From positions 30,945,764 to 31,009,763 of the forward strand of contig OV121092.1 of the NCBI GenBank assembly GCA_921293015.1: 64,000 nt of DNA, in the 5' to 3' direction. Source of the DNA: Phorcus lineatus (Eukaryota; Mollusca; Gastropoda; Trochida; Trochidae). This document shows, in pieces, positions 4,081 through 62,992 of the stretch (positions are counted from its first letter, which is position 1; each line of letters starts with the position of its first letter). A program made the position numbers and the translations under genes. The notes beneath the pieces were generated by a model, which was given only the letters and a program-made list of their open reading frames with translations, did not search any database and had not been told where the DNA came from.

Positions 4081-4398
4081 GAGGTGAGATGAGGAGATTT
4101 TGGGTCGGACTTTTTTTTTACGCCGCTTTCAATAGTATTTCACTAATATTACGGGTGCCAGTACGTTTAAATGGAGAAAGACCGCAATTACATTTTGGCT
4201 TTGCATTGCGGTGAAATCTGCGAGCATCGTTTGGAACTAGCAAACCATGAATGGTACTGCGGTGAAATTTGGTGTAGTATTGCACAAAAACCTTACTGCA
4301 TGCAGAACAGTATATAACTGGAGACAAAGTTGGTGGACCCGCGGCATGATCTGAACTCTTGAGCTCCAAACGAGCTAACCATTAACTATCGAAACCCC
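4081..4398 (-). mobile_element. tRNA-derived SINE S1, diverged copy
   Basis: Reverse complement of the S1 consensus seen intact at 22.8 kb. The tail with TGAGG repeats and the domain TTTACGCCGCTTTCAA lie at the low-coordinate end, and a decayed tRNA-like head (…TTAATGGTTAGCTCG…) at the high end. Clearly diverged and without an obvious target-site duplication, so old. The 83-residue frame inside it is a shadow. Confidence 0.85.
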
Positions 4399-14203: not shown

Positions 14204-14475
14204 GAAGTATAACTTCCTTAAGGGGCATTTTAGAAGCTGGATTGATGAAGACGAACGAGTTCTTATGGATAGTCAACTTCTTTATTGTATGGATTGCGAC
14301 GTATCGGTGTAGTTACTAACACCATATTATAAATATGTATCACTTGCTTGATAACGGTGTTAGTATCTACACCGAAACGTCGCAATCCATGCAATAAAGA
14401 AGTTGACTATCCATAAGAACTCGTTCGTCTTCATCAATCCAGCTTCTAAAATGCCCCTTAAGGAAGTTATACTTC
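14204..14475. mobile_element. fold-back element G, near-perfect 120-bp arms
   Basis: Left arm 14204-14323 and right arm 14356-14475 are reverse complements with only a few mismatches, separated by 32 bp. Arm landmarks are GAAGTATAACTTCCTTAAGG at the outside and a GGTGT…ACACC stem near the centre. A single, more decayed half-copy lies at about 36965-37105. No internal coding. It is a non-autonomous inverted-repeat element; superfamily unknown. Confidence 0.85.
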
Positions 14476-16329: not shown

Positions 16330-16610
16330 AGGTGAGGGGAGGTGATTTGGGGTTTAACGCCGCTTTCAAGAGTATTTCACTTATATCATGACTGCTAGTA
16401 TTATTCCAGGGGGAAAGCCCGTAACACCATCGTGGCTATGCATTGCGGTGAAACCTGCGAGCATCGGCTGGAACTAGTCAACCGTGAAATTCAGTGTAGC
16501 ATTGCACCCGAACCGTACTATGCCTAGAACATATCTCTACTGTAGACAAAGTCGCAGAGCCCCTGGCTCAAAATCGCCAGATGAATGTACTATTAATGGT
16601 CCCTTACAAT
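16330..16610 (-). mobile_element. SINE S1, diverged copy
   Basis: Reverse complement of the S1 consensus: GGTTTAACGCCGCTTTCAAG near the low end, then the GCATTGCGGTGAAACCTGCG block, then a decayed head. The A and B boxes are no longer recognisable, so the copy is transcriptionally dead. Confidence 0.82.
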
Positions 16611-22780: not shown

Positions 22781-22793
22781 TCCTTTGAAGACA

Positions 22794-23099
22794 GGGCGGG
22801 ATAGCGCAGTGGTTAGCGCGTTCGGCTTCGGATCAGGAGGTCCGTGGTTCGAATCCCGCCAGGGGCTCGGCAACTTTGTCTGCAGTAGAGAACTGTTCTA
22901 CACGCAGTCAGGTTTGGGTGCAATGCTACACTGAAATTCAGCGCAGTACCACCCATGGTTCGCTAGTTCCAGCCGATGCTCGCAGGTTTCGCCGCAATGC
23001 ATAGCCACAATGGTGTTGCGGGCTTTCTCCCTGCACTAATACTAGCAGCCGCGATATAAGTGAAATAATCTTGAAAGCGGCGTTAAACACCAACTCACC
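22794..23099 (+). mobile_element. full-length tRNA-derived SINE S1
   Basis: The best copy of the family, 306 bp. The tRNA-like head has an A box (TAGCGCAGTGGTTAGCGCG) and a B box (GGTTCGAATCCC), the pol III internal promoter. The central body is followed by the 3' domain GAAAGCGGCGTTAAAC and a short tail. An exact 13-bp target-site duplication TCCTTTGAAGACA flanks it at 22781-22793 and 23100-23112, which fixes both ends. The head is not a functional tRNA: there is no 3' acceptor stem partner and it continues into the SINE body. Pol III promoter boxes look intact, so this copy could be transcribed. Confidence 0.95.
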
Positions 23100-23249
23100 T
23101 CCTTTGAAGACATGAAGTTTTTAAAAACATGACAGCTCTCGATGAGGTCAATATCAAATGTTATACACGTCTAGGGAAGTCACGATATTTTAGGGTGTTA
23201 TTTACTGTCTAAACCCCTACAAGAAGTACCCTGGCCATTTTGGTTTCAC

Positions 23250-31741: not shown

Positions 31742-33467
31742 ATAGAATGGTGTACAACATGTATGTACAGTTAGCGCCTGAGGAACAGCAGTGATTGAGA
31801 GTATTTTTAAGATAGAGACAAAGATGCATTCTCTATGCTGTACATAGAATGGTGTACAACATGTATGTACAGTTAGTGCCTGGGGAACAGCAGTGATTGA
31901 GAGTATTTTTAAGACAGAGACAAAGATGCATTCTCTATGCTTTACATAGAATGGTGTACAACATGTATGTACAGTTAGCGCCTGAGGAACAGCAGTGATT
32001 GAGAGTATTTTTAAGATAGAGACAAAGATGCATTCTCTATGCTGTACATAGAATGGTGTACAGCATGTATGTACAGTTAGCGCCTGGGGAACAGCAGTGA
32101 TTGAGAGTATTTTTAAGACAGAGACAAAGATGCATTCTCTATGCTTTACATAGAATGGTGTACAACATGTATGTACAGTTAGCGCCTGAGGAACAGCAGT
32201 GATTGAGAGTATTTTTAAGATAGAGACAAAGATGCATTCTCTATGCTGTACATAGAATGGTGTACAGCATGTATGTACAGTTAGCGCCTGGGGAACAGCA
32301 GTGATTGAGAGTATTTTTAAGACAGAGACAAAGATGCATTCTCTATGCTGTACATAGAATGGTGTACAGCATGTATGTACAGTTAGCGCCTGGGGAACAG
32401 CAGTGATTGAGAGTATTTTTAAGATAGAGACAAAGATGCATTCTCTATGCTGTACATAGAATGGTGTACAGCATGTATGTACAGTTAGCGCCTGGGGAAC
32501 AGCAGTGATTGAGAGTATTTTTAAGACAGAGACAAAGATGCATTCTCTATGCTGTACATAGAATGGTGTACAGCATGTATGTACAGTTAGCGCCTGGGGA
32601 ACAGCAGTGATTGAGAGTATTTTTAAGACAGAGACAAAGATGCATTCTCTATGCTTTACATAGAATGGTGTACAACATGTATGTACAGTTAGCGCCTGAG
32701 GAACAGCAGTGATTGAGAGTATTTTTAAGATAGAGACAAAGATGCATTCTCTATGCTGTACATAGAATGGTGTACAGCATGTATGTACAGTTAGCGCCTG
32801 GGGAACAGCAGTGATTGAGAGTATTTTTAAGACAGAGACAAAGATGCATTCTCTATGCTGCACATAGAATGGTGTACAGCATGTATGTACAGTTAGCGCC
32901 TGGGGAACAGCAGTGATTGAGAGTATTTTTAAGATAGAGACAAAGATGCATTCTCTATGCTGTACATAGAATGGTGTACAGCATGTATGTACAGTTAGCG
33001 CCTGGGGAACAGCAGTGATTGAGAGTATTTTTAAGACAGAGACAAAGATGCATTCTCTATGCTGTACATAGAATGGTGTACAGCATGTATGTACAGTTAG
33101 CGCCTGGGGAACAGCAGTGATTGAGAGTATTTTTAAGACAGAGACAAAGATGCATTCTCTATGCTGTACATAGAATGGTGTACAGCATGTATGTACAGTT
33201 AGCGCCTGGGGAACAGCAGTGATTGAGAGTATTTTTAAGACAGAGACAAAGATGCATTCTCTATGCTGTACATAGAATGGTGTACAGCATGTATGTACAG
33301 TTAGCGCCTGGGGAACAGCAGTGATTGAGAGTATTTTTAAGACAGAGACAAAGATGCATTCTCTATGCTGTGCATAGAATGGTGTACAGCATGTATGTAC
33401 AGTTAGCGCCTGGGGAACAGCAGTGATTGAGAGTATTTTTAAGACAGAGACAAAGATGCATTCTCTG
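31742..33467. repeat. 102-bp tandem repeat array, 17 units
   Basis: Units start every 102 bp (31742, 31844, 31946 … 33374); the last is truncated. Two linked variants occur. Type A has GTACAACATG, CCTGAGG and AAGATAGAG; type B has GTACAGCATG, CCTGGGG and AAGACAGAG. A and B alternate at the low-coordinate end (units 1-5), and the five highest units are all B. Type B junctions carry a perfect 8-bp inverted repeat GCTGTACA/TGTACAGC. Because 102 is a multiple of three and one antisense frame has no stop, a 383-residue repetitive frame arises; it is judged non-coding. Confidence 0.97.
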
Positions 33468-34572: not shown

Positions 34573-34878
34573 TGATTAGGTGAGGTGAGTTGGGTTGGTG
34601 AGGTGAGGTGAGTTGGTTTGAAGATTATTTCACTTATCGCGGCTGCTAGTATTATTGCAGGGAGAAAGCCCGCAACACCATTGTGGCTATGCATTGTGGG
34701 GAATACTGCGAGCATTGGCTGAAGCTAGCTAACCATGGGTGGTACTGCGCTGAGATTCAGTGTAGCATAGCACCTAAACATGACTGCCTGTACAACAGTT
34801 CTCAACTGCAGACAAAGTTTCGAAACATAGACCTCTTGATCCGAAGCCCAACGCGCTAACCACTGCGCTATCCCGCCC
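34573..34878 (-). mobile_element. SINE S1, full length
   Basis: 306 bp in reverse orientation, ending with the GGCGGGATAGCGCAGTGG head at the high end and an expanded GGTGAGGTGAG tail at the low end. An 11-bp target-site duplication TCCTTTATTGT is present at 34562-34572 and 34879-34889. Confidence 0.93.
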
Positions 34879-34889
34879 TCCTTTATTGT

Positions 34890-37322: not shown

Positions 37323-37331
37323 CTATAATGA

Positions 37332-37646
37332 GGTGAGGTCATATGGGGTTTAACGCTGCTTTCAAGATTATTTCACTTGTATCGCGGCTGCTAGTATTAT
37401 GGCAGGGAGAAAGCCCGCAACACCATTGAGGCTATGCATTGCGGCGAAACCTGCGAGCATCGGTTGGAACTAGCGAACCATTGGTTGTACTTCGCTGAAT
37501 TTCAGTGTAGCATTGCACCCAAACCTCACTGCTTATAGAACAGTTCTCTACTGCAGAAAAAGTTGCCGAGCCCTTGGCAGAATTCAAATCACGGACCTCA
37601 TGATCCGAAGCCGAACGCGCTAACCACTGCGCTATCCCGCCCCACC
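37332..37646 (-). mobile_element. SINE S1, full length
   Basis: Reverse-orientation copy with recognisable A box (TAGCGCAGTGGTTAGCGCG) and a B box changed to a weaker form (TGATTTGAATTC on the minus strand). The 9-bp target-site duplication CTATAATGA is at 37323-37331 and 37647-37655. The 76-residue frame inside is a shadow of the element. Confidence 0.93.
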
Positions 37647-41399: not shown

Positions 41400-41407
41400 C
41401 GTGTATG

Positions 41408-41854
41408 CTTTTTCTCCCATTAGATGTAGCTCCGTCATTAATTCCTATGCAACCTTTGTCATAAGAGCTCTTCTCGAGCTTCTGTCATTTTTCCTTTTGC
41501 CCTTAGCGGCACATTATAGCGACATAAACTACCTTGCTAAATTTTAACCAATGAAAACGTCGAATGCATGAATAACCTATTTGTTGTCACACAGGCCTGT
41601 TCTATGATAAAGTCGCCAATGGCTTATGTGTTCTGTAAAGAAGACTCAAAGTGAAAAGTACATTCGAATAAAGTTGGGCTTTCCGACAGGTATCTTGGGC
41701 GATTTTGAATAATAACTTTTGAAACGGTGGCACTGATTGCACAAATGACATTGATCCAACCAGACTTCTTCATTTCTAGACCGAGAAACCTTCGTATTAC
41801 TACAGAGGTTGTATTGGAATTTATGACGGAGCTACCTCTGTTGGTAGAGAATGG
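41408..41854 (+). mobile_element. hAT-type MITE family B, copy 3
   Basis: Same terminal repeats as the 62.5 kb copy (GATGTAGCTCCGTCATTAAT on the left, TTTATGACGGAGCTACCTCT on the right). An 8-bp duplication with one mismatch, CGTGTATG/CGTGTATA, flanks it at 41400-41407 and 41855-41862, as expected for hAT elements. Confidence 0.88.
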
Positions 41855-42779: not shown

Positions 42780-42804
42780 ATATATATATATATATATATA
42801 TATA
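42780..42804. repeat. (TA)n microsatellite at left edge of Penelope-like element
   Basis: About 12 TA units directly next to the element's terminal AT-rich sequence. Confidence 0.9.
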
Positions 42805-42860
42805 GATTAAATATATATAGATTAAATATAACATACTTCACATAGTCGTTTGAAGAATCA

Positions 42861-42913
42861 TTTTAATCCGATACTAGTATTTCGTCAATAGTATTGACTC
42901 ATCAGGGATGAAA
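42861..42913 (-). ncRNA. hammerhead ribozyme, inverted copy
   Basis: Exact reverse-complement counterpart of the plus-strand motif: the core CTGATGA reads on the minus strand from 42905 to 42899, all three stems are unchanged, and predicted cleavage lies between 42870 and 42869. It belongs to the minus-strand Penelope-like copy. Confidence 0.92.
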
Positions 42914-43162
42914 CGATATGATCGTTAACATCGCATTACAAGCGTTTTTATAACAAAATATACGCACAATGTACAAGGATATATTGTAAATTATGCTAAT
43001 TAGGTGACATCATGGTTCTTCCTTGTAGGTCTTCTGATTGACACAATCACTCTCTTATGAGTTTACCCCTTGAGCAATATGTTAATGTGACATAATCCCT
43101 TTTGTTTTTAAATAGCTCAATTGTAGTTAGAGATATATGTCAGTGATTTAAGGGTAATCATC

Positions 43163-43607
43163 TCATTGTTTATTTAGTGAGGGTCTATAGGTGTCAATGA
43201 AGGACTCTTCAAGTCGTAAAAGTGCATTTGAGACACTGTCCATGTTAGATTTATGAAATAATTTATAGAAAGGAAATATTTTGAAATCACCATTTGCACA
43301 GGTAGAAAGATGTTTATTTACAAATAAACAGCGGTATCTGCTATCGTTATTGTGTTGTCTGTGTAAGGTTACCCTATTTCTTAGGCATTCAGTTTTACCA
43401 ATATAGGATTTTTTACACTTAGGGCACATTATTGCATAAATGACATTTTTTGAATTGCAATCAAAGTTAGATTTTATTTCAAATGTTTTGCCATTGTCAA
43501 ATTTGAAAGACGAGACTTCTAATAAATGGGGACATGTGCCACATCTTTTATTTGAACATTTGGAAACTGAAGGTCTTTCTGTTGGGTTTTGAATACCATC
43601 ATATTTA
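43163..43607 (-). pseudogene. Penelope-like GIY-YIG endonuclease domain, inverted truncated copy
   Basis: Minus-strand copy that starts abruptly at KYDGIQNPTERP, just after the arm boundary, and ends at the same RPSLNKQ stop as the plus copy. Only a few residue differences exist (for example SSFKFDNG here, SSFTFDNG in the plus copy). The Met-Ala-Arg-Arg-Ser lead-in is junction sequence, not part of the family. All GIY-YIG motif residues are retained. Truncation removes the linker and reverse transcriptase. Confidence 0.92.
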
Positions 43608-44405
43608 GACCGTCTAGCCATAATTAGTAATGAAAACCTCAGGTCTCTAAGATTAGAGGAACTAAAATCTTCACTATTGCAGCGAGGCTATCCAGAACCT
43701 CTTATCAAAGATGGAATAAATAAAGCACAGGCACTCACTCTTGAAGAGTTACGTACTCCTAAAGATAAAATAAATGAGGACCAAAACACAATCGCTTTTG
43801 TGACAACACATAATAAAAACAATGCGGAATTATTCCCTGTTATACATCGGAACTTACCGATGCTTAGTCAAGACAAGAGGTTAGGCCAAATGTTGAAAAG
43901 AAATAAAATCATTAAAAGCAAAAGACAGCCAAAAAATCTTAAACACATCATAACAAGGGCTAAATATGATGGTATTCAAAACCCAACAGAAAGACCTTCA
44001 GTTTCCAAATGTTCAAATAAAAGATGTGGCACATGTCCCCATTTATTAGAAGGCTCGTCTTTCACATTTGACAATGGCAAAACATTTGAAATAAAATCTA
44101 ACTTTGATTGCAATTCAAAAAATGTCATTTATGCAATAATGTGCCCTAAGTGTAAAAAATCCTATATTGGTAAAACTGAATGCCTAAGAAATAGGGTAAC
44201 CTTACACAGACAACACAATAACGATAGCAGATACCGCTGTTTATTTGTAAATAAACATCTTTCTACTTGTGCAAATGGTGATTTCAAAATATTTCCTTTC
44301 TATAAATTATTTCATAAATCTAACATGGGCAGTGTCTCAAATGCACTTTTACGACTTGAAGAGTCCTTCATTGACACCTATAGACCCTCACTAAATAAAC
44401 AATGA
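43608..44405 (+). pseudogene. Penelope-like ORF C-terminus: linker plus GIY-YIG endonuclease (5'-truncated)
   Basis: The frame is open from before 43620; the first residues in element sequence run NENLRSLRLEELK…LQRGYPEPLI, the linker that follows the reverse transcriptase in Penelope-like proteins. Next come a Cys-rich motif (CSNKRCGTC), then the GIY-YIG fold: VIYAIMCPKCKKSYIGKTE carries the two motif tyrosine segments, LRNRVTLHRQH the conserved Arg, and RLEESFIDTYRPSLNKQ the conserved metal-binding Glu, ending at 44405. All expected catalytic positions are present, but without the reverse transcriptase the element cannot move by itself. In the full protein the endonuclease nicks the target and primes reverse transcription. 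Confidence 0.93.
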
Positions 44406-44654
44406 GATGATTACCCTTAAATCACTGACATATATCTCTAACTACAATTGAGCTATTTAAAAACAAAAGGGATTATGTCACATTAACATATTGCTCAAGG
44501 GGTAAACTCATAAGAGAGTGATTGTGTCAATCAGAAGACCTACAAGGAAGAACCATGATGTCACCTAATTAGCATAATTTACAATATATCCTTGTACATT
44601 GTGCGTATATTTTGTTATAAAAACGCTTGTAATGCGATGTTAACGATCATATCG

Positions 44655-44707
44655 TTTCATCCCTGATGAGTCAATACTATTGACGAAATACTAGTATCGG
44701 ATTAAAA
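44655..44707 (+). ncRNA. hammerhead ribozyme, type I, short stem III
   Basis: Core CTGATGA at 44663-44669. Stem II is GTCAAT/ATTGAC with a three-base loop ACT (44670-44684). The conserved GAAA is at 44685-44688. Stem III is very short: ATAC/GTAT with a two-base loop, closing into the UH cleavage motif with C at 44698. Stem I pairs ATCC before the core with GGAT after the cut (44699-44702), then a mismatch and three more A-T pairs. Predicted cleavage lies between 44698 and 44699. Hammerheads with minimal stem III are established components of Penelope-like terminal repeats. Confidence 0.92.
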
Positions 44708-44783
44708 TGATTCTTCAAACGACTATGTGAAGTATGTTATATTTAATCTATATGTGACCTTGCGTTTGAACCAATTCAACTTT

Positions 44784-44785
<2 letters not shown>

Positions 44786-44833
<48 letters not shown>
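44786..44833. repeat. (TA)n microsatellite near right edge of Penelope-like element
   Basis: About 24 TA units, separated by some 30 bp from the element end. Confidence 0.9.
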
Positions 44834-46485: not shown

Positions 46486-48924
46486 TCAAACTTTGCCTTT
46501 AGGAAAAGTATAGTCTGTCATCCAGACCCTATGGCAAAATATTAAAGGAGCCTTCTTAAGTCTAGAAAATGTTGGCAAGTCTAGTTGCCTCAGCCATAGA
46601 TCCACAAGACACAAAATGTCCTCTGAGAAATTTGCATTGGTATGCTTTCCGGCATTGTGACGGACATTGGCTAATTTATCAAAGTGCTTACATATTTTGT
46701 CTGTTGTGAGTGCACTTCGACTCACTCTTAGAATTGTTTTCTCAGTGTACTTTCCTCTATAGGTGTGCACTTCGTCCTTGAAAACTTTGTTGCAGTGTTC
46801 AATATCCAGATCATTTGGATGGTTAGTGTCTGGTTTTCCTTGATGATTAACTGTTCTGTTCCATATAAGACGTTCTGCCTGTCTCTCAGAGAGAAGAACC
46901 TGGGCCTGGGCTGTTGTTTCGAGCATACCAAAGGCATATTTTGGACATTTGCAGGCCTTGTAATAAATACAAAAATACTTGGCAATCCTCATCATTCGCT
47001 CTCCGTCACCCATTTTGATGGCATCATTGTGGTTCAGTCTCAAAAGTCCCAATGTCAGACACAGCTTTGTGTAGTTGTACACTGTTCCCTTCTCTTGAGA
47101 TTTGGAGGCCGAAGTTATCCCTTTGGAATTGTAAAGAGGGTCTGGGTGCTGATGTACACGAGCCTCATGTTTTCTGAGAGCTGATGGCCTTACATACTCT
47201 TTATGACAGTATCGACAGGCTATCGTGTTTGATTGAGGTCCAAAATCAGGAAGTTTAGGCACTAGTATCTCAACATGTTGTTCAACAAATGCCAAAGCAT
47301 TTCCCATGATGTAATCATACATTGACTTTTCATCTCCAATAGGTCCATCATACTCTGGTGTGGGCTTAGATTCCAGGTTTTCCATTTTGAAATGTTGTAA
47401 GCCTCCTGATACTATGTAAGCAGCCGTGACTTTGTCCATGAATTCAGCAGATGCATAGTAATCATTGTGAGAATCAGCAGGTACATTTTTTGCATTTATA
47501 CGGTTCTTTGCAGCAGCCAGGGTTCCTATGCACTTGAAAGATTCTGATTTGTACAATTGGCTCCAAATCAATTTGAGAAACTCCGCCTGATTGTGAAACT
47601 CTTCCATCTTTGGAATCAGGCCTTGCAAACTTTTTGATGGTGTTCTGCCATTTTCTCTGCATTGTTGGGCTCGCTTATGACGCTCAAAAGTGAGGTAGTC
47701 ACCACCACTGAGTGTCTTTAGTGGCACTTTGCTTGAATCTTCCAAGTCATGGTTTGGAACAAACTGGTGGATGAACTGACAAATGTCGATCATTTCTGCA
47801 TTGTATTGTTCATTTTTCTCAAGGACACCAAGATTTCTTCTGCTTGTTTTTGATTTCATCTCCTTCATGTATTTGTGACACATATAGTCTGGAAGAACAG
47901 CAGAAAAACTGGACAGACTTGGAATGAGTTCAGTCCACTTCCATGCAACCAAGAGGGCCAGCTCCTTCTTAATGACAGATTGTTCACTTTGAGATGGAAT
48001 GAATTCAGAAAATTTAACTTTGTCAGGATCATTCTTAGGGTTGAAATCGTCTAAATGATTGCCGCTAACACGATTCAAGTAAGCACATATTTGGAACATA
48101 TGTTGACTTTTGTTCTGGATTGTTAAAGTCATGTGACGGACTTTAGTATAAAAGTCCACATTGTCTCCAACAAAGTAAAATCCCGGATGCATATCAGTCT
48201 GGTGCTTCTGCAGTGTTCTTGCTGCATCATCTAACAAGAGAACGGTGTCTGGCGATGCTTCAATTTCAACTGTTTCTTTTAAAATTTGAACGTTGTTCCT
48301 TAGTGCCTTCTCTTGGAGATGGTCTTCTTCACACTGTGCCTTCCAATTAAGAATATCATGGTTCCAAGCCTTGGAAAAATTTTCAATGTCATTTGAAAAT
48401 CCATTATAAGCACAACAGTCTCCTGTCGCACTCAATCTTTGAAACAAGGATTTCTTTGCCCCTCCTCTTACAAGAAGAATGCTATTAAGATGTTGTATAG
48501 CATTTAAGTCCCTGTTGTACGCTGATATCAACTTTGAAGCAGCTGTTACTATTGAAGGCAATAGTGATTCAATATTTTTGCGCTTGTTTCTATGAAGCGA
48601 TGGATTTGATGTGAACACCTGAAGAATTGTCCAAAAGGTTGGCGCCTTTTGTTTTAATACAAGAGAGATTTCTTCAAATGAGAGATCTAGAAGACTTTGT
48701 GAATCAGTTTGTCTTAGAATGGTAGGGTTCTGTTTTGAGCATAAGTCAGATACTTCTCTTTGGATTTGATGGCAAAAATTTGCAATCAGATATTTCTGAA
48801 GGTCTTCACATTGGAAAATAACTCCTGATAGATACTTGTAATCTGATGTGGTCAGGGCATAGGCGATAGGTCCAAGGTTATCAAGTACATTCTGCTTGAC
48901 TCCATCTTGTAAACTAATTGTTAC
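46486..48924 (-). CDS. DUF6589-domain protein, exon 2 (main coding exon)
   Basis: 812 codons without interruption, to a stop at 46486-46488. Together with exon 1 it gives a predicted 968-residue protein, a usual size for the family. Recognisable DUF6589 signatures are GGDYLTFERHKRAQQ (about residue 562 of the spliced protein), a long helical stretch ending GGLQHF near 666, GDGERMMRIAKYF, then ERLIWNRTVN and NDLDIEHCNKVFKDEV near the C-terminus. A C2H2 zinc finger (CRYCHKEYVRPSALRKH…H) starts at about residue 726. The exon starts at 48924 after a TTCATTCCAG acceptor; upstream residues in the open frame are intron. Function of the family is unknown. The conserved acidic residues in GGD, GDG and DLDIEH would fit a nuclease or transposase fold, but that is inference. 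No frameshift or internal stop, so it is probably functional. Confidence 0.87.
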   Translation of the reverse strand, partial: VTISLQDGVKQNVLDNLGPIAYALTTSDYKYLSGVIFQCEDLQKYLIANFCHQIQREVSDLCSKQNPTILRQTDSQSLLDLSFEEISLVLKQKAPTFWTILQVFTSNPSLHRNKRKNIESLLPSIVTAASKLISAYNRDLNAIQHLNSILLVRGGAKKSLFQRLSATGDCCAYNGFSNDIENFSKAWNHDILNWKAQCEEDHLQEKALRNNVQILKETVEIEASPDTVLLLDDAARTLQKHQTDMHPGFYFVGDNVDFYTKVRHMTLTIQNKSQHMFQICAYLNRVSGNHLDDFNPKNDPDKVKFSEFIPSQSEQSVIKKELALLVAWKWTELIPSLSSFSAVLPDYMCHKYMKEMKSKTSRRNLGVLEKNEQYNAEMIDICQFIHQFVPNHDLEDSSKVPLKTLSGGDYLTFERHKRAQQCRENGRTPSKSLQGLIPKMEEFHNQAEFLKLIWSQLYKSESFKCIGTLAAAKNRINAKNVPADSHNDYYASAEFMDKVTAAYIVSGGLQHFKMENLESKPTPEYDGPIGDEKSMYDYIMGNALAFVEQHVEILVPKLPDFGPQSNTIACRYCHKEYVRPSALRKHEARVHQHPDPLYNSKGITSASKSQEKGTVYNYTKLCLTLGLLRLNHNDAIKMGDGERMMRIAKYFCIYYKACKCPKYAFGMLETTAQAQVLLSERQAERLIWNRTVNHQGKPDTNHPNDLDIEHCNKVFKDEVHTYRGKYTEKTILRVSRSALTTDKICKHFDKLANVRHNAGKHTNANFSEDILCLVDLWLRQLDLPTFSRLKKAPLIFCHRVWMTDYTFPKGKV

Positions 48925-49837
48925 CTGGAATGAATACATATGTTTTAGTTTCATGTTTGGTCCACAAAGTAATGTCAATAAAAAAATATCAGAAGTATTC
49001 AATTGTTACTGATGTTTAAATTGAATGTGTAAATCTGCACAATAAATCTGACACTTAGGAATTGTTACTACAGTTGCAATTCATTAGTTTTAAATTATTA
49101 TCATTATTTTTTTATTCTGCATTATACTTATCAAACATAGATTATGTAATAGAAAAAGGAGCATATCACCTATATGTTATAAATTGAAACATATCTTGAC
49201 AGTGTTTACTGCATCATTTAAGAAATTTTATTAGTTATGTAATTATTTCGCCCATTTATAAAACATCATTCTAAAATTGCATAATATCTCTAAGCTGTAA
49301 GTGGCATAGACTAAGTTGTTGAAGTCAAATATGTCAAACTTTATAAATGGTGTTATCTTATCGAGAATAAGAAGTTAAATCTTAGAAAATCAGAATTCTT
49401 ATGCTTATCAGTTCAGAAGAGTGACAATAAACGGGAAAAAGTCATGATTTCTGATCTAAAACCAGACAGTTACACACACCAATGAACGGAAATTTTTAAA
49501 CCTATTAACAGCAGACAAAAAGACATATGCGTTGATATTGGGAAATAGGTCATAAGAATTACATGTTTATCTGCCACAAAATTTCGTCTTTTTAACATTT
49601 ATAGGGCTATTTTCCAATTATCATTGCAAACAAGAACATATCATCATTTTGACATTTTAGAGATAAAAATGCAAGTTTCGTTACCTAAGGCAGTTTTAAC
49701 TTATCACAGGTCAAACAGTATTTTGGCTCTTACTAAAGCCACATGAAAAATCATGAAACATACTCTGTGTCGCTTTTGATTAGTTTAGCTTTAAATAATG
49801 TTGTGATCTAGTAAATATTGACATTTAATTCACTTAC
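48925..49837 (-). other. intron of the DUF6589 gene
   Basis: 913 bp with consensus GTAAGT donor and a CAG acceptor preceded by a modest pyrimidine stretch; phase 0. AT-rich, with no repeat recognised inside. Confidence 0.8.
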
Positions 49838-52629: not shown

Positions 52630-53035
52630 TTGCACGTGTCAATGGATAACCTGGTAGCTGAGGAGCTAAATGCAAGCAGGCAGAAGCTCCTGTTCAGGGT
52701 TCGGCTTCGGATCAGGAGGTCCGTGGTTCGAATCCCGCCAGGGGCTCGGCAACTTTGTCTGCAGTAGAGAACTGTTCTACACGCAGTCAGGTTTGGGTGC
52801 AATGCTACACTGAAATTCAGCGCAGTACCACCCATGGTTCGCTAGTTCCAGCCGATGCTCACAGGTTTCACCGCAATGCATAGCCACAATGGTGTTGCGG
52901 GCTTTCTTCCTGCAATAATACTAGCAGCCGCGATATAAGTGAAATAATCTTGAAAGCGGCTTTAAACACCAACTCACCTCACCTGTTCAGGGCACCAAAG
53001 CTGGACAGGTCGACTGTTAGAACTCCAACCTACTC
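52630..53035 (+). mobile_element. SINE family C fragment interrupted by SINE S1
   Basis: The parts 52630-52699 and 52982-53035 match family C in the orientation opposite to the 40.55 kb copy, including AAGCTGGACAGGTCGACTG; an S1 element is inserted between them. Confidence 0.65.
52700..52981 (+). mobile_element. SINE S1, 5'-truncated, nested in SINE C
   Basis: Starts at TTCGGCTTCGG, inside the tRNA-like head, so the A box is lost while the B box GGTTCGAATCCC remains. An exact 11-bp duplication CCTGTTCAGGG at 52689-52699 and 52982-52992 shows that the truncation happened on insertion, as in incomplete target-primed reverse transcription. The 3' end has the usual domain and TCACC tail. Nearly identical to the 22.8 kb copy. 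Confidence 0.94.
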
Positions 53036-53889: not shown

Positions 53890-54345
53890 ACCGTGTTTTC
53901 AACTGTAACGCCAGTTAATAATCGGGGTAGCATAGCGCATGGGTTAGCACTTTCGGCTTCGGATCAAGAGGTCCGTGGTTCGAATCTCGCCAGGCGCTCA
54001 GCAACTTTGTCTGTAGTAGAGAACTGTTCCACACGCACTCAGGTTTAGGTGCGTTGTTACAATGAATTTCAGTACACTACCATCTATTATTTGCTAGTTC
54101 CAGCCGAGGCTAGCAGGTTTCGCCGCAATGCATAGCCACAATTTTTTTCGGGCGTTTCTGTCCAATAATACTAGCAGCCGCGATATAAGTGAAATACTCT
54201 TGTAAGAAATCCAATATCACCTCACCTCAGTTATGAAACACATGTATGGAAATGATTCAAAAGTGTGTGGAAGAAGATTAGGATGAAAGGGATCGAAAGG
54301 ATGAGGGAACAGACTGAAAACTCTCTAACAAACCGTTTGAATGGA
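53890..54345 (-). mobile_element. SINE family C copy split by SINE S1
   Basis: The stretch 53890-53921 and the part from 54228 to about 54345 (GGGATCGAAAGGATGAGGGA and neighbours) align with the first 130 bp of the 40.55 kb copy. Confidence 0.6.
53922..54227 (+). mobile_element. SINE S1 nested in SINE C
   Basis: 306 bp with head (GGGTAGCATAGCGCATGGGTT), B box GGTTCGAATCTC and 3' domain decayed to TCTTGTAAGAAATCC. Flanked by imperfect CAGTTAATAA/CAGTTATGAA, probably the eroded target-site duplication. Older than the copies at 22.8 and 52.7 kb. Confidence 0.88.
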
Positions 54346-62518: not shown

Positions 62519-62526
62519 GATAGGAG

Positions 62527-62984
62527 CATTTTCTCCCAACAGAGGTAGCTCCGTCATCAATTCCTATGCAACCTCTGTCTTGATACGAAGGTTTCTTGGG
62601 CGTCAGGCAGTTTCCTTAACGGGACAATATTACAACGTTAACTACCTGGCAATAATTCAGACAATGAAAACACCGAAAGCATGAAAAGCTTATTTGTTGT
62701 CATATAAGCCTATGCAATGATGCAGTCCCAAGATGAGGCGCATGTGTTCTGTAAAGACGACTGTAAGTGCAAAGTGCATATTCGAATAAAGTTTACCTGT
62801 TTTAAAGCTTCCGGAAATAACTTAGGCGATTGGAATTTGAACTTTTGAAACGGCGTCGCTGATTGCACAACTAACTTTGATTGCATCCAAACAGCGGGCT
62901 ACATTTCGTCCACGAGAAACCTTCGGATTAAGACAGAGATTGTATAGGAATTTATGACGGAGCTATATCTGTGGGGTGAGAATG
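62527..62984 (+). mobile_element. hAT-type MITE family B, copy 4
   Basis: 458 bp, the reference copy for the family. Ends CATTTTCTCCCAACAGAGG and its complement; an exact 8-bp target-site duplication GATAGGAG lies at 62519-62526 and 62985-62992. Non-coding. Confidence 0.93.
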
Positions 62985-62992
62985 GATAGGAG

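What the first reader, a model, noticed from the sequence alone, without database searches (positions are those of the whole stretch)
42815..44754. Penelope-like palindrome with two intact hammerhead ribozymes facing each other
Two near-identical 790-bp arms, head-to-head, each end in a complete hammerhead core about 1.8 kb apart on opposite strands. Read-through transcription from either side would give RNA with one ribozyme near its 3' part and the antisense of the other near its 5' part. The transcript would also be a huge hairpin that could block or time cleavage. Penelope-like elements carrying hammerheads are established; this symmetric, recent arrangement with intact GIY-YIG motifs on both strands is worth study.
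Basis: partly seen in the sequence, partly recalled or inferred. Interest (0 to 1): 0.8.

Follow-up and report, generated by a model that had tools for sequence, protein, structure and literature searches.

The report
Head-to-head pair of truncated Penelope retrotransposons
This is a back-to-back pair of cut-short Penelope-type jumping-gene copies, each still carrying a small self-cutting RNA motif; the arrangement is usual for this family, but its two unequal ends may record how such elements insert.

Summary
In detail: a 797-nt inverted repeat with 5 mismatches carries a GIY-YIG endonuclease frame and a minimal type I hammerhead motif on each strand. It is best read as one insertion of two 5'-truncated Penelope-like element (PLE) copies, head to head; the 345-nt "spacer" is the longer 5' part of the right copy.

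The right copy runs 32 nt further (44754-44785) than the left. The window's only two AT arrays of 8 or more units lie at the outer ends. Head-to-head copies, an optional 31-bp tail on one inverted end, and AT-rich targets are published PLE features (PMC3846280).

The ribozymes point outward. Stem III is a 10-nt palindrome, the dimer type said to need tandem copies (PMC6466107). Here a transcript holds one sense ribozyme plus its antisense, so efficient cis-cleavage is unlikely. No reverse transcriptase domain matched in either copy.

The lead beyond the ordinary: the ends lie 55 and 87 nt past the predicted cut. An Anolis PLE starts reverse transcription 85-92 nt past its cut, uses two adjacent start sites and extends both DNA strands (PMC11167929), suggesting one initiation per DNA end here.

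The parts
42780..42804 (.). Left AT array, probably part of the original target
   Evidence: One of only two AT arrays of 8 or more units in the window
42800..42814 (-). Extra 15-nt repeat of the last 15 nt of the left copy; unexplained, perhaps slippage at the start of reverse transcription
   Evidence: Read: 42800-42814 is identical to 42815-42829
42815..43611 (-). Left PLE copy, 5'-truncated, shorter, no tail
   Evidence: 797-nt arm, 5 mismatches to the right arm
42862..42913 (-). Left minimal type I hammerhead; predicted cut after C42870
   Evidence: Descriptor scan; identical to the right one, no mismatch falls in it
43181..43447 (-). GIY-YIG domain of the left copy
   Evidence: Pfam PF01541, E 7.8e-8, residues 81-169 of frame 43166-43687
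43606..43616 (.). Small imperfect palindrome centred on the head-to-head junction
   Evidence: 5-nt arms with 1-nt spacer, centre 43611; 2.9% of window positions have such a centre within 4 nt
43612..44785 (+). Right PLE copy, 5'-truncated, longer, with tail
   Evidence: Frame 43593-44402 runs through the 345-nt loop into GIY-YIG; arm; exact 5' start uncertain by a few nt
44121..44387 (+). GIY-YIG domain of the right copy
   Evidence: Pfam PF01541, E 1.3e-7, residues 177-265; motifs VIY at 44124 and YIG at 44163
44655..44706 (+). Right minimal type I hammerhead; stem II 6 bp, stem III 3 bp within a 10-nt palindrome; predicted cut after C44698
   Evidence: RF00163 19.3 bits at 44659-44702
44754..44785 (+). 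32-nt extension (tail) present on the right copy only
   Evidence: Alignment of the two copies, sequence
44786..44833 (.). Right AT array, 24 units, probably the other part of the original target

Best explanation
A single insertion of a Penelope-like retrotransposon into an (AT)n microsatellite. The element's enzyme cut the AT-rich target, and reverse transcription started inside the element RNA, downstream of the hammerhead, at both DNA ends: one end at the distal start (right copy, with tail), the other at the proximal start (left copy, without tail). Both cDNAs stopped early (5' truncation) and their 5' ends were joined head to head. The product has no recognisable reverse transcriptase, so it probably cannot move by itself. 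Its hammerheads are left over from the master element's terminal repeat. They would work best as tandem sense copies, which this locus lacks, so a read-through RNA should mostly fold into a long duplex and cleave little. Shown: the anatomy, motifs, unequal ends, AT flanks and palindromic stem III. Inferred: the PLE assignment (about 0.93), both-end priming (about 0.5), end joining, and low cleavage. The confidence given is for the whole account.
For: Inverted arms with nearly equal 3' ends and unequal 5' ends; GIY-YIG in both copies, no reverse transcriptase match; hammerhead in both; 32-nt tail on one copy only; the only two AT arrays of 8 or more units at the two outer ends. Literature: inverted head-to-head copies, 31-bp tail optional on one inverted end, AT-rich targets (PMC3846280); an Anolis PLE cuts and extends both strands, starts at two adjacent internal RNA sites whose interval is the tail, and starts mainly 111-118 bp into an ORF whose hammerhead cut is at 26 bp, i.e. 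85-92 nt past the cut (PMC11167929); here the distal end is 87 nt past the cut. Dimer-type stem III: PMC6466107.
Against: A small palindrome sits on the junction, the feature PMC3846280 reads as self-priming. The Anolis start lies in an AC-rich stem loop; the tail here is only 16 of 32 A or C, and a stem of its size occurs in 451 of 3998 windows. The position of the second Anolis start is not given in the text I read, so the 55-nt end is compared only through tail length. The 15-nt repeat at the left end is not explained. No target-site duplication can be read. The predicted RNA homodimer shares a 10-bp stem III but does not form stem I of a double hammerhead in its minimum-energy fold. One locus only; no relatives found; host genome not held.
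Confidence: 0.5

Rival explanations
1. Same PLE insertion, but the second arm arose by self-priming: a cDNA or antisense strand folded back and copied its own sequence.
For: Favoured by PMC3846280 for head-to-head copies with junction palindromes; an 11-nt imperfect palindrome is centred on 43611.
Against: Fold-back copying would be expected to carry the 32-nt tail into both arms, but the left arm lacks it. Palindromes like this are near 2.9% of window positions.
Confidence: 0.25
2. Two separate insertions of the same family, or a later rearrangement of a tandem pair, placed the copies head to head.
For: PLE copies favour AT-rich targets and can lie beside each other (PMC11167929; PMC3846280); the arms differ at 5 of 797 positions.
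Against: The copies abut with no target sequence between them, and AT arrays lie at the outer ends only.
Confidence: 0.1
3. Assembly or library artefact (fold-back read or chimaera).
For: Long inverted repeats are prone to misassembly (general knowledge); no reads were available.
Against: The flanks differ, the arms stop at element ends rather than running on into flanking DNA, the tail is on one side only, and the arms differ at 5 positions.
Confidence: 0.05
4. One reading: a functional ribozyme pair in which the hairpin blocks or times cleavage.
For: Both cores are intact, and the predicted full hairpin leaves no base of 44649-44706 unpaired.
Against: The layout is a common form of PLE insertion. 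Of 4 coding differences between the arms 3 change an amino acid, so nothing suggests selection. No transcript or conservation data.
Confidence: 0.02

Closest known systems
Penelope elements of the rotifer Adineta vaga (PMC3846280; passages and Discussion seen)
   Same: Head-to-head inverted copies, optional 31-bp tail on one inverted repeat, 5' truncation, GIY-YIG endonuclease, AT-rich targets, palindrome at the junction
   Different: Inverted part there is typically a pLTR of about 180-220 bp; here it is 797 nt and includes the endonuclease coding region. Hammerhead is not mentioned in that paper (0 occurrences)
Poseidon PLE of Anolis carolinensis, PAc (PMC11167929; main text seen)
   Same: Hammerhead near the terminal repeat, main start of reverse transcription 85-92 nt past the hammerhead cut (87 nt here), tail of similar length, AT-rich target
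   Different: PAc is organised in tandem; its start lies in an AC-rich stem loop, not clearly reproduced here
Minimal type I hammerheads of PLEs (PMC6155905, PMC7229834, PMC6466107; passages seen)
   Same: Very short stem III with palindromic loop, type I core
   Different: Double-hammerhead action is described for tandem copies; here the two copies are on opposite strands

Membership tests
Penelope-like element (endonuclease-containing) | GIY-YIG endonuclease domain | tested here: met
   PF01541 in both copies, above the curated cut-off
Penelope-like element (endonuclease-containing) | Telomerase-like reverse transcriptase in the same ORF, upstream of the endonuclease | tested here: inconclusive
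   No reverse transcriptase match in either copy; both copies are truncated before that region, and the part upstream of GIY-YIG matched no family with support (best E 0.12). Its likeness to PLE sequence is recalled only
Penelope-like element (endonuclease-containing) | Direct or inverted terminal copies, optional tail of about 30-40 bp | tested here: met
   Inverted copies; 32-nt extension on one
Penelope-like element (endonuclease-containing) | AT-rich target | tested here: met
   AT arrays at both outer ends, the only two of 8 or more units in the window
Penelope-like element (endonuclease-containing) | Target-site duplication | tested here: inconclusive
   Longest word shared by the flanks is the AT repeat itself
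Hammerhead ribozyme, type I | Conserved core with three helices and cleavage triplet | tested here: met
   Descriptor: 2 sites against 1 in 400 controls
Hammerhead ribozyme, type I | Rfam gathering score | tested here: not met
   RF00163 19.3 bits against 34. Literature says PLE versions are minimal, lacking helix III and tertiary contacts (PMC6155905), so I keep the name for the motif and not as a curated Rfam member
Hammerhead ribozyme, type I | Self-cleavage activity | not testable with these tools
   Needs in vitro transcription

The most novel reading that the evidence does not exclude
The locus is a frozen footprint of two-ended target-primed reverse transcription by a PLE: each end of one DNA break primed its own cDNA, each using a different one of the two internal RNA start sites. 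This would explain both the head-to-head copies and why the tail is present on only one inverted end, without self-priming on an antisense template.
Probability: 0.35. Interest if true: 0.5.

Novelty: new member of a known kind. Interest (0 to 1): 0.27.

Why it matters
How PLEs insert is not settled (PMC11167929; PMC3846280). If unequal ends at two fixed RNA positions prove general among head-to-head PLE copies, genome sequence alone would separate two-ended priming from self-priming. The locus also shows that inverted PLE insertions leave dimer-type hammerheads without a sense partner.

Tried and rejected
Genome-wide search for the master element: no host genome is held. Relatives by protein in viral contigs (13 stretches matched a pattern, 0 confirmed) and genome contigs (49 matched, 0 confirmed); exact ribozyme core in viral contigs, 0 matches. 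Structure prediction from one sequence was useless (mean pLDDT 35.5), so no fold search was run. PDB sequence search gave 4 weak matches, best an Endonuclease II chain at E 0.013 (that this is a GIY-YIG enzyme is recalled). NCBIfam gave 0 families for 2 queries. Folding of the ribozyme alone gave no signal. The tail as an AC-rich stem loop was tested and not supported. No age in years is given: the host is unknown. Seven paper searches were run; bear on inverted copies and priming, and I saw no title or abstract there proposing two-ended priming for head-to-head PLE copies. Two papers I tried to open by id (PMC5785218 and PMC8557442, the latter and former cited) are not held, and most listed papers were not opened, so novelty of that reading is not established.

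Full report
Observation. The inverted repeat is as described: 42815-43611 against 43957-44753, 797 nt, 99% complementary, 345 nt between the arms, with 5 mismatches in 797. A match of this length is far beyond chance. Both arms carry a GIY-YIG endonuclease frame and the same hammerhead motif. A descriptor asking for the core, three helices and the cleavage triplet finds only these 2 sites in the window, against 1 site in 400 simulated sequences of the same length and dinucleotide make-up; I wrote the descriptor knowing the site. The core motif alone is not informative (6 matches, 5.27 expected). Rfam gives no match at gathering score. On a 101-nt stretch, type I hammerhead RF00163 matches over its whole length, 19.3 bits against 34 needed, E 0.012; on 2.4 kb the only hammerhead family listed was type III, at E 5 in each arm.

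Anatomy. The 345-nt loop is not a spacer. The plus-strand frame 43593-44402 runs through it into GIY-YIG, so it is the longer 5' part of the right copy. The left copy, on the minus strand, begins at about 43611 and abuts the right copy. Both copies are 5'-truncated and head to head, with their 3' ends and ribozymes outward. No reverse transcriptase domain matched in either frame. A search of the window with the right copy gave, beyond the two copies, only weak hits (best E 0.018 for DNA, 1.2 for protein).

Ends. The arms share sequence up to 42815 and 44753. The right copy continues 32 nt (44754-44785) before an AT array of 24 units. The left copy has no such extension; it has an extra copy of its last 15 nt (42800-42814) and then an AT array. 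These are the only two AT arrays of 8 or more units in 64 kb, so the element most likely sits inside one former microsatellite. No target-site duplication can be read, because the longest word shared by the flanks is the AT repeat itself.

Comparison with known elements. [quoted passage not shown] PMC8969392 (passages) lists 5' truncation, inverted pLTRs and short 3' extensions for PLEs. This locus fits these. PMC11167929 (abstract and main text seen) shows for an Anolis PLE that the protein cuts and extends both strands of AT-rich DNA and starts reverse transcription at two adjacent internal RNA sites, whose interval is the tail. There the hammerhead cut is 26 bp after the start codon and the commonest start is 111-118 bp into the ORF, i.e. 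85-92 nt past the cut (my subtraction). Here the two ends are 55 and 87 nt past C44698. The second Anolis position is not given in the text I read. The agreement in distance is my comparison, on one locus.

Mechanism. The account I favour is one insertion in which both DNA ends primed a cDNA, each from a different start site, both truncated and then joined. The main rival is self-priming, favoured by PMC3846280 because of junction palindromes. This junction does carry a small one, centred on 43611, but 2.9% of window positions have such a centre within 4 nt. Self-priming would be expected to copy the tail into both arms, and the left arm lacks it. I give two-ended priming about even odds. The Anolis AC-rich stem loop is not clearly reproduced: 16 of 32 tail bases are A or C, and a stem of the same size occurs in 451 of 3998 windows.

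Ribozymes. Stem III and its loop form a perfect 10-nt palindrome, so a monomer has 3 bp with a 4-nt loop. The hammerhead fold of the 52-nt monomer scores -2.7 kcal/mol against -7.3 for its best fold. Two copies together reach -25.6 with a 10-bp shared stem III, though stem I of a double hammerhead is not formed in that minimum-energy structure. PLE hammerheads are described as minimal (PMC6155905, passages; PMC7229834, passages). Double-hammerhead action is said to need a palindromic stem III loop and, in eukaryotes, a tandem arrangement (PMC6466107, passages, citing a paper that is not held). The inverted layout cannot supply two sense ribozymes on one transcript, and the predicted full hairpin, -1436.8 kcal/mol, leaves no base of 44649-44706 unpaired. 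So the expected behaviour is little cis-cleavage; this is inference. The Anolis ribozyme showed no cleavage without protein in vitro, and its inactive mutants still inserted.

Age and constraint. Five differences in 797 suggest recent origin, with the caveat that gene conversion could make arms alike. All 5 lie in the inner 373 nt (by hand arithmetic about 0.02 if placed at random), and the innermost, at the junction, may not be a substitution. Of the other 4, all coding, 3 change an amino acid, which gives no sign of selection.

Limits. The host is unknown and no genome is held. The PLE assignment rests on GIY-YIG, hammerhead, tail, AT target and inverted layout together. The region upstream of GIY-YIG matched no family with support, and its likeness to PLE sequence is recalled only. 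Structure prediction failed.

Noticed in passing
31742-33466: Tandem array of about 17 copies of a 102-bp unit (97% matches). As 102 is 34 codons, a minus-strand frame of 587 aa stays open through it; probably a satellite rather than a gene.
   Followed up: partly
46489-49005: Open minus-strand frame of 839 aa matching Pfam DUF6589 (E 1.2e-36).
   Followed up: partly
4116-4335, 16333-16567, 22793-23101, 34599-34879, 37325-37643, 52699-52984, 53924-54234: Interspersed repeat of about 220-310 bp in at least 7 places, SINE-like in size; no tRNA gene was found in the window.
   Followed up: no
279-747, 41407-41854, 62520-62985: Repeat family of about 450-470 bp, 73-84% alike, with inverted ends of roughly 50-110 nt; MITE-like.
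   Followed up: no
14204-14475: A stretch of about 270 bp that is its own reverse complement at 92% identity.
   Followed up: no
42800-42829: Exact 15-nt tandem duplication at the left end of the left PLE copy, absent from the right end.
   Followed up: partly
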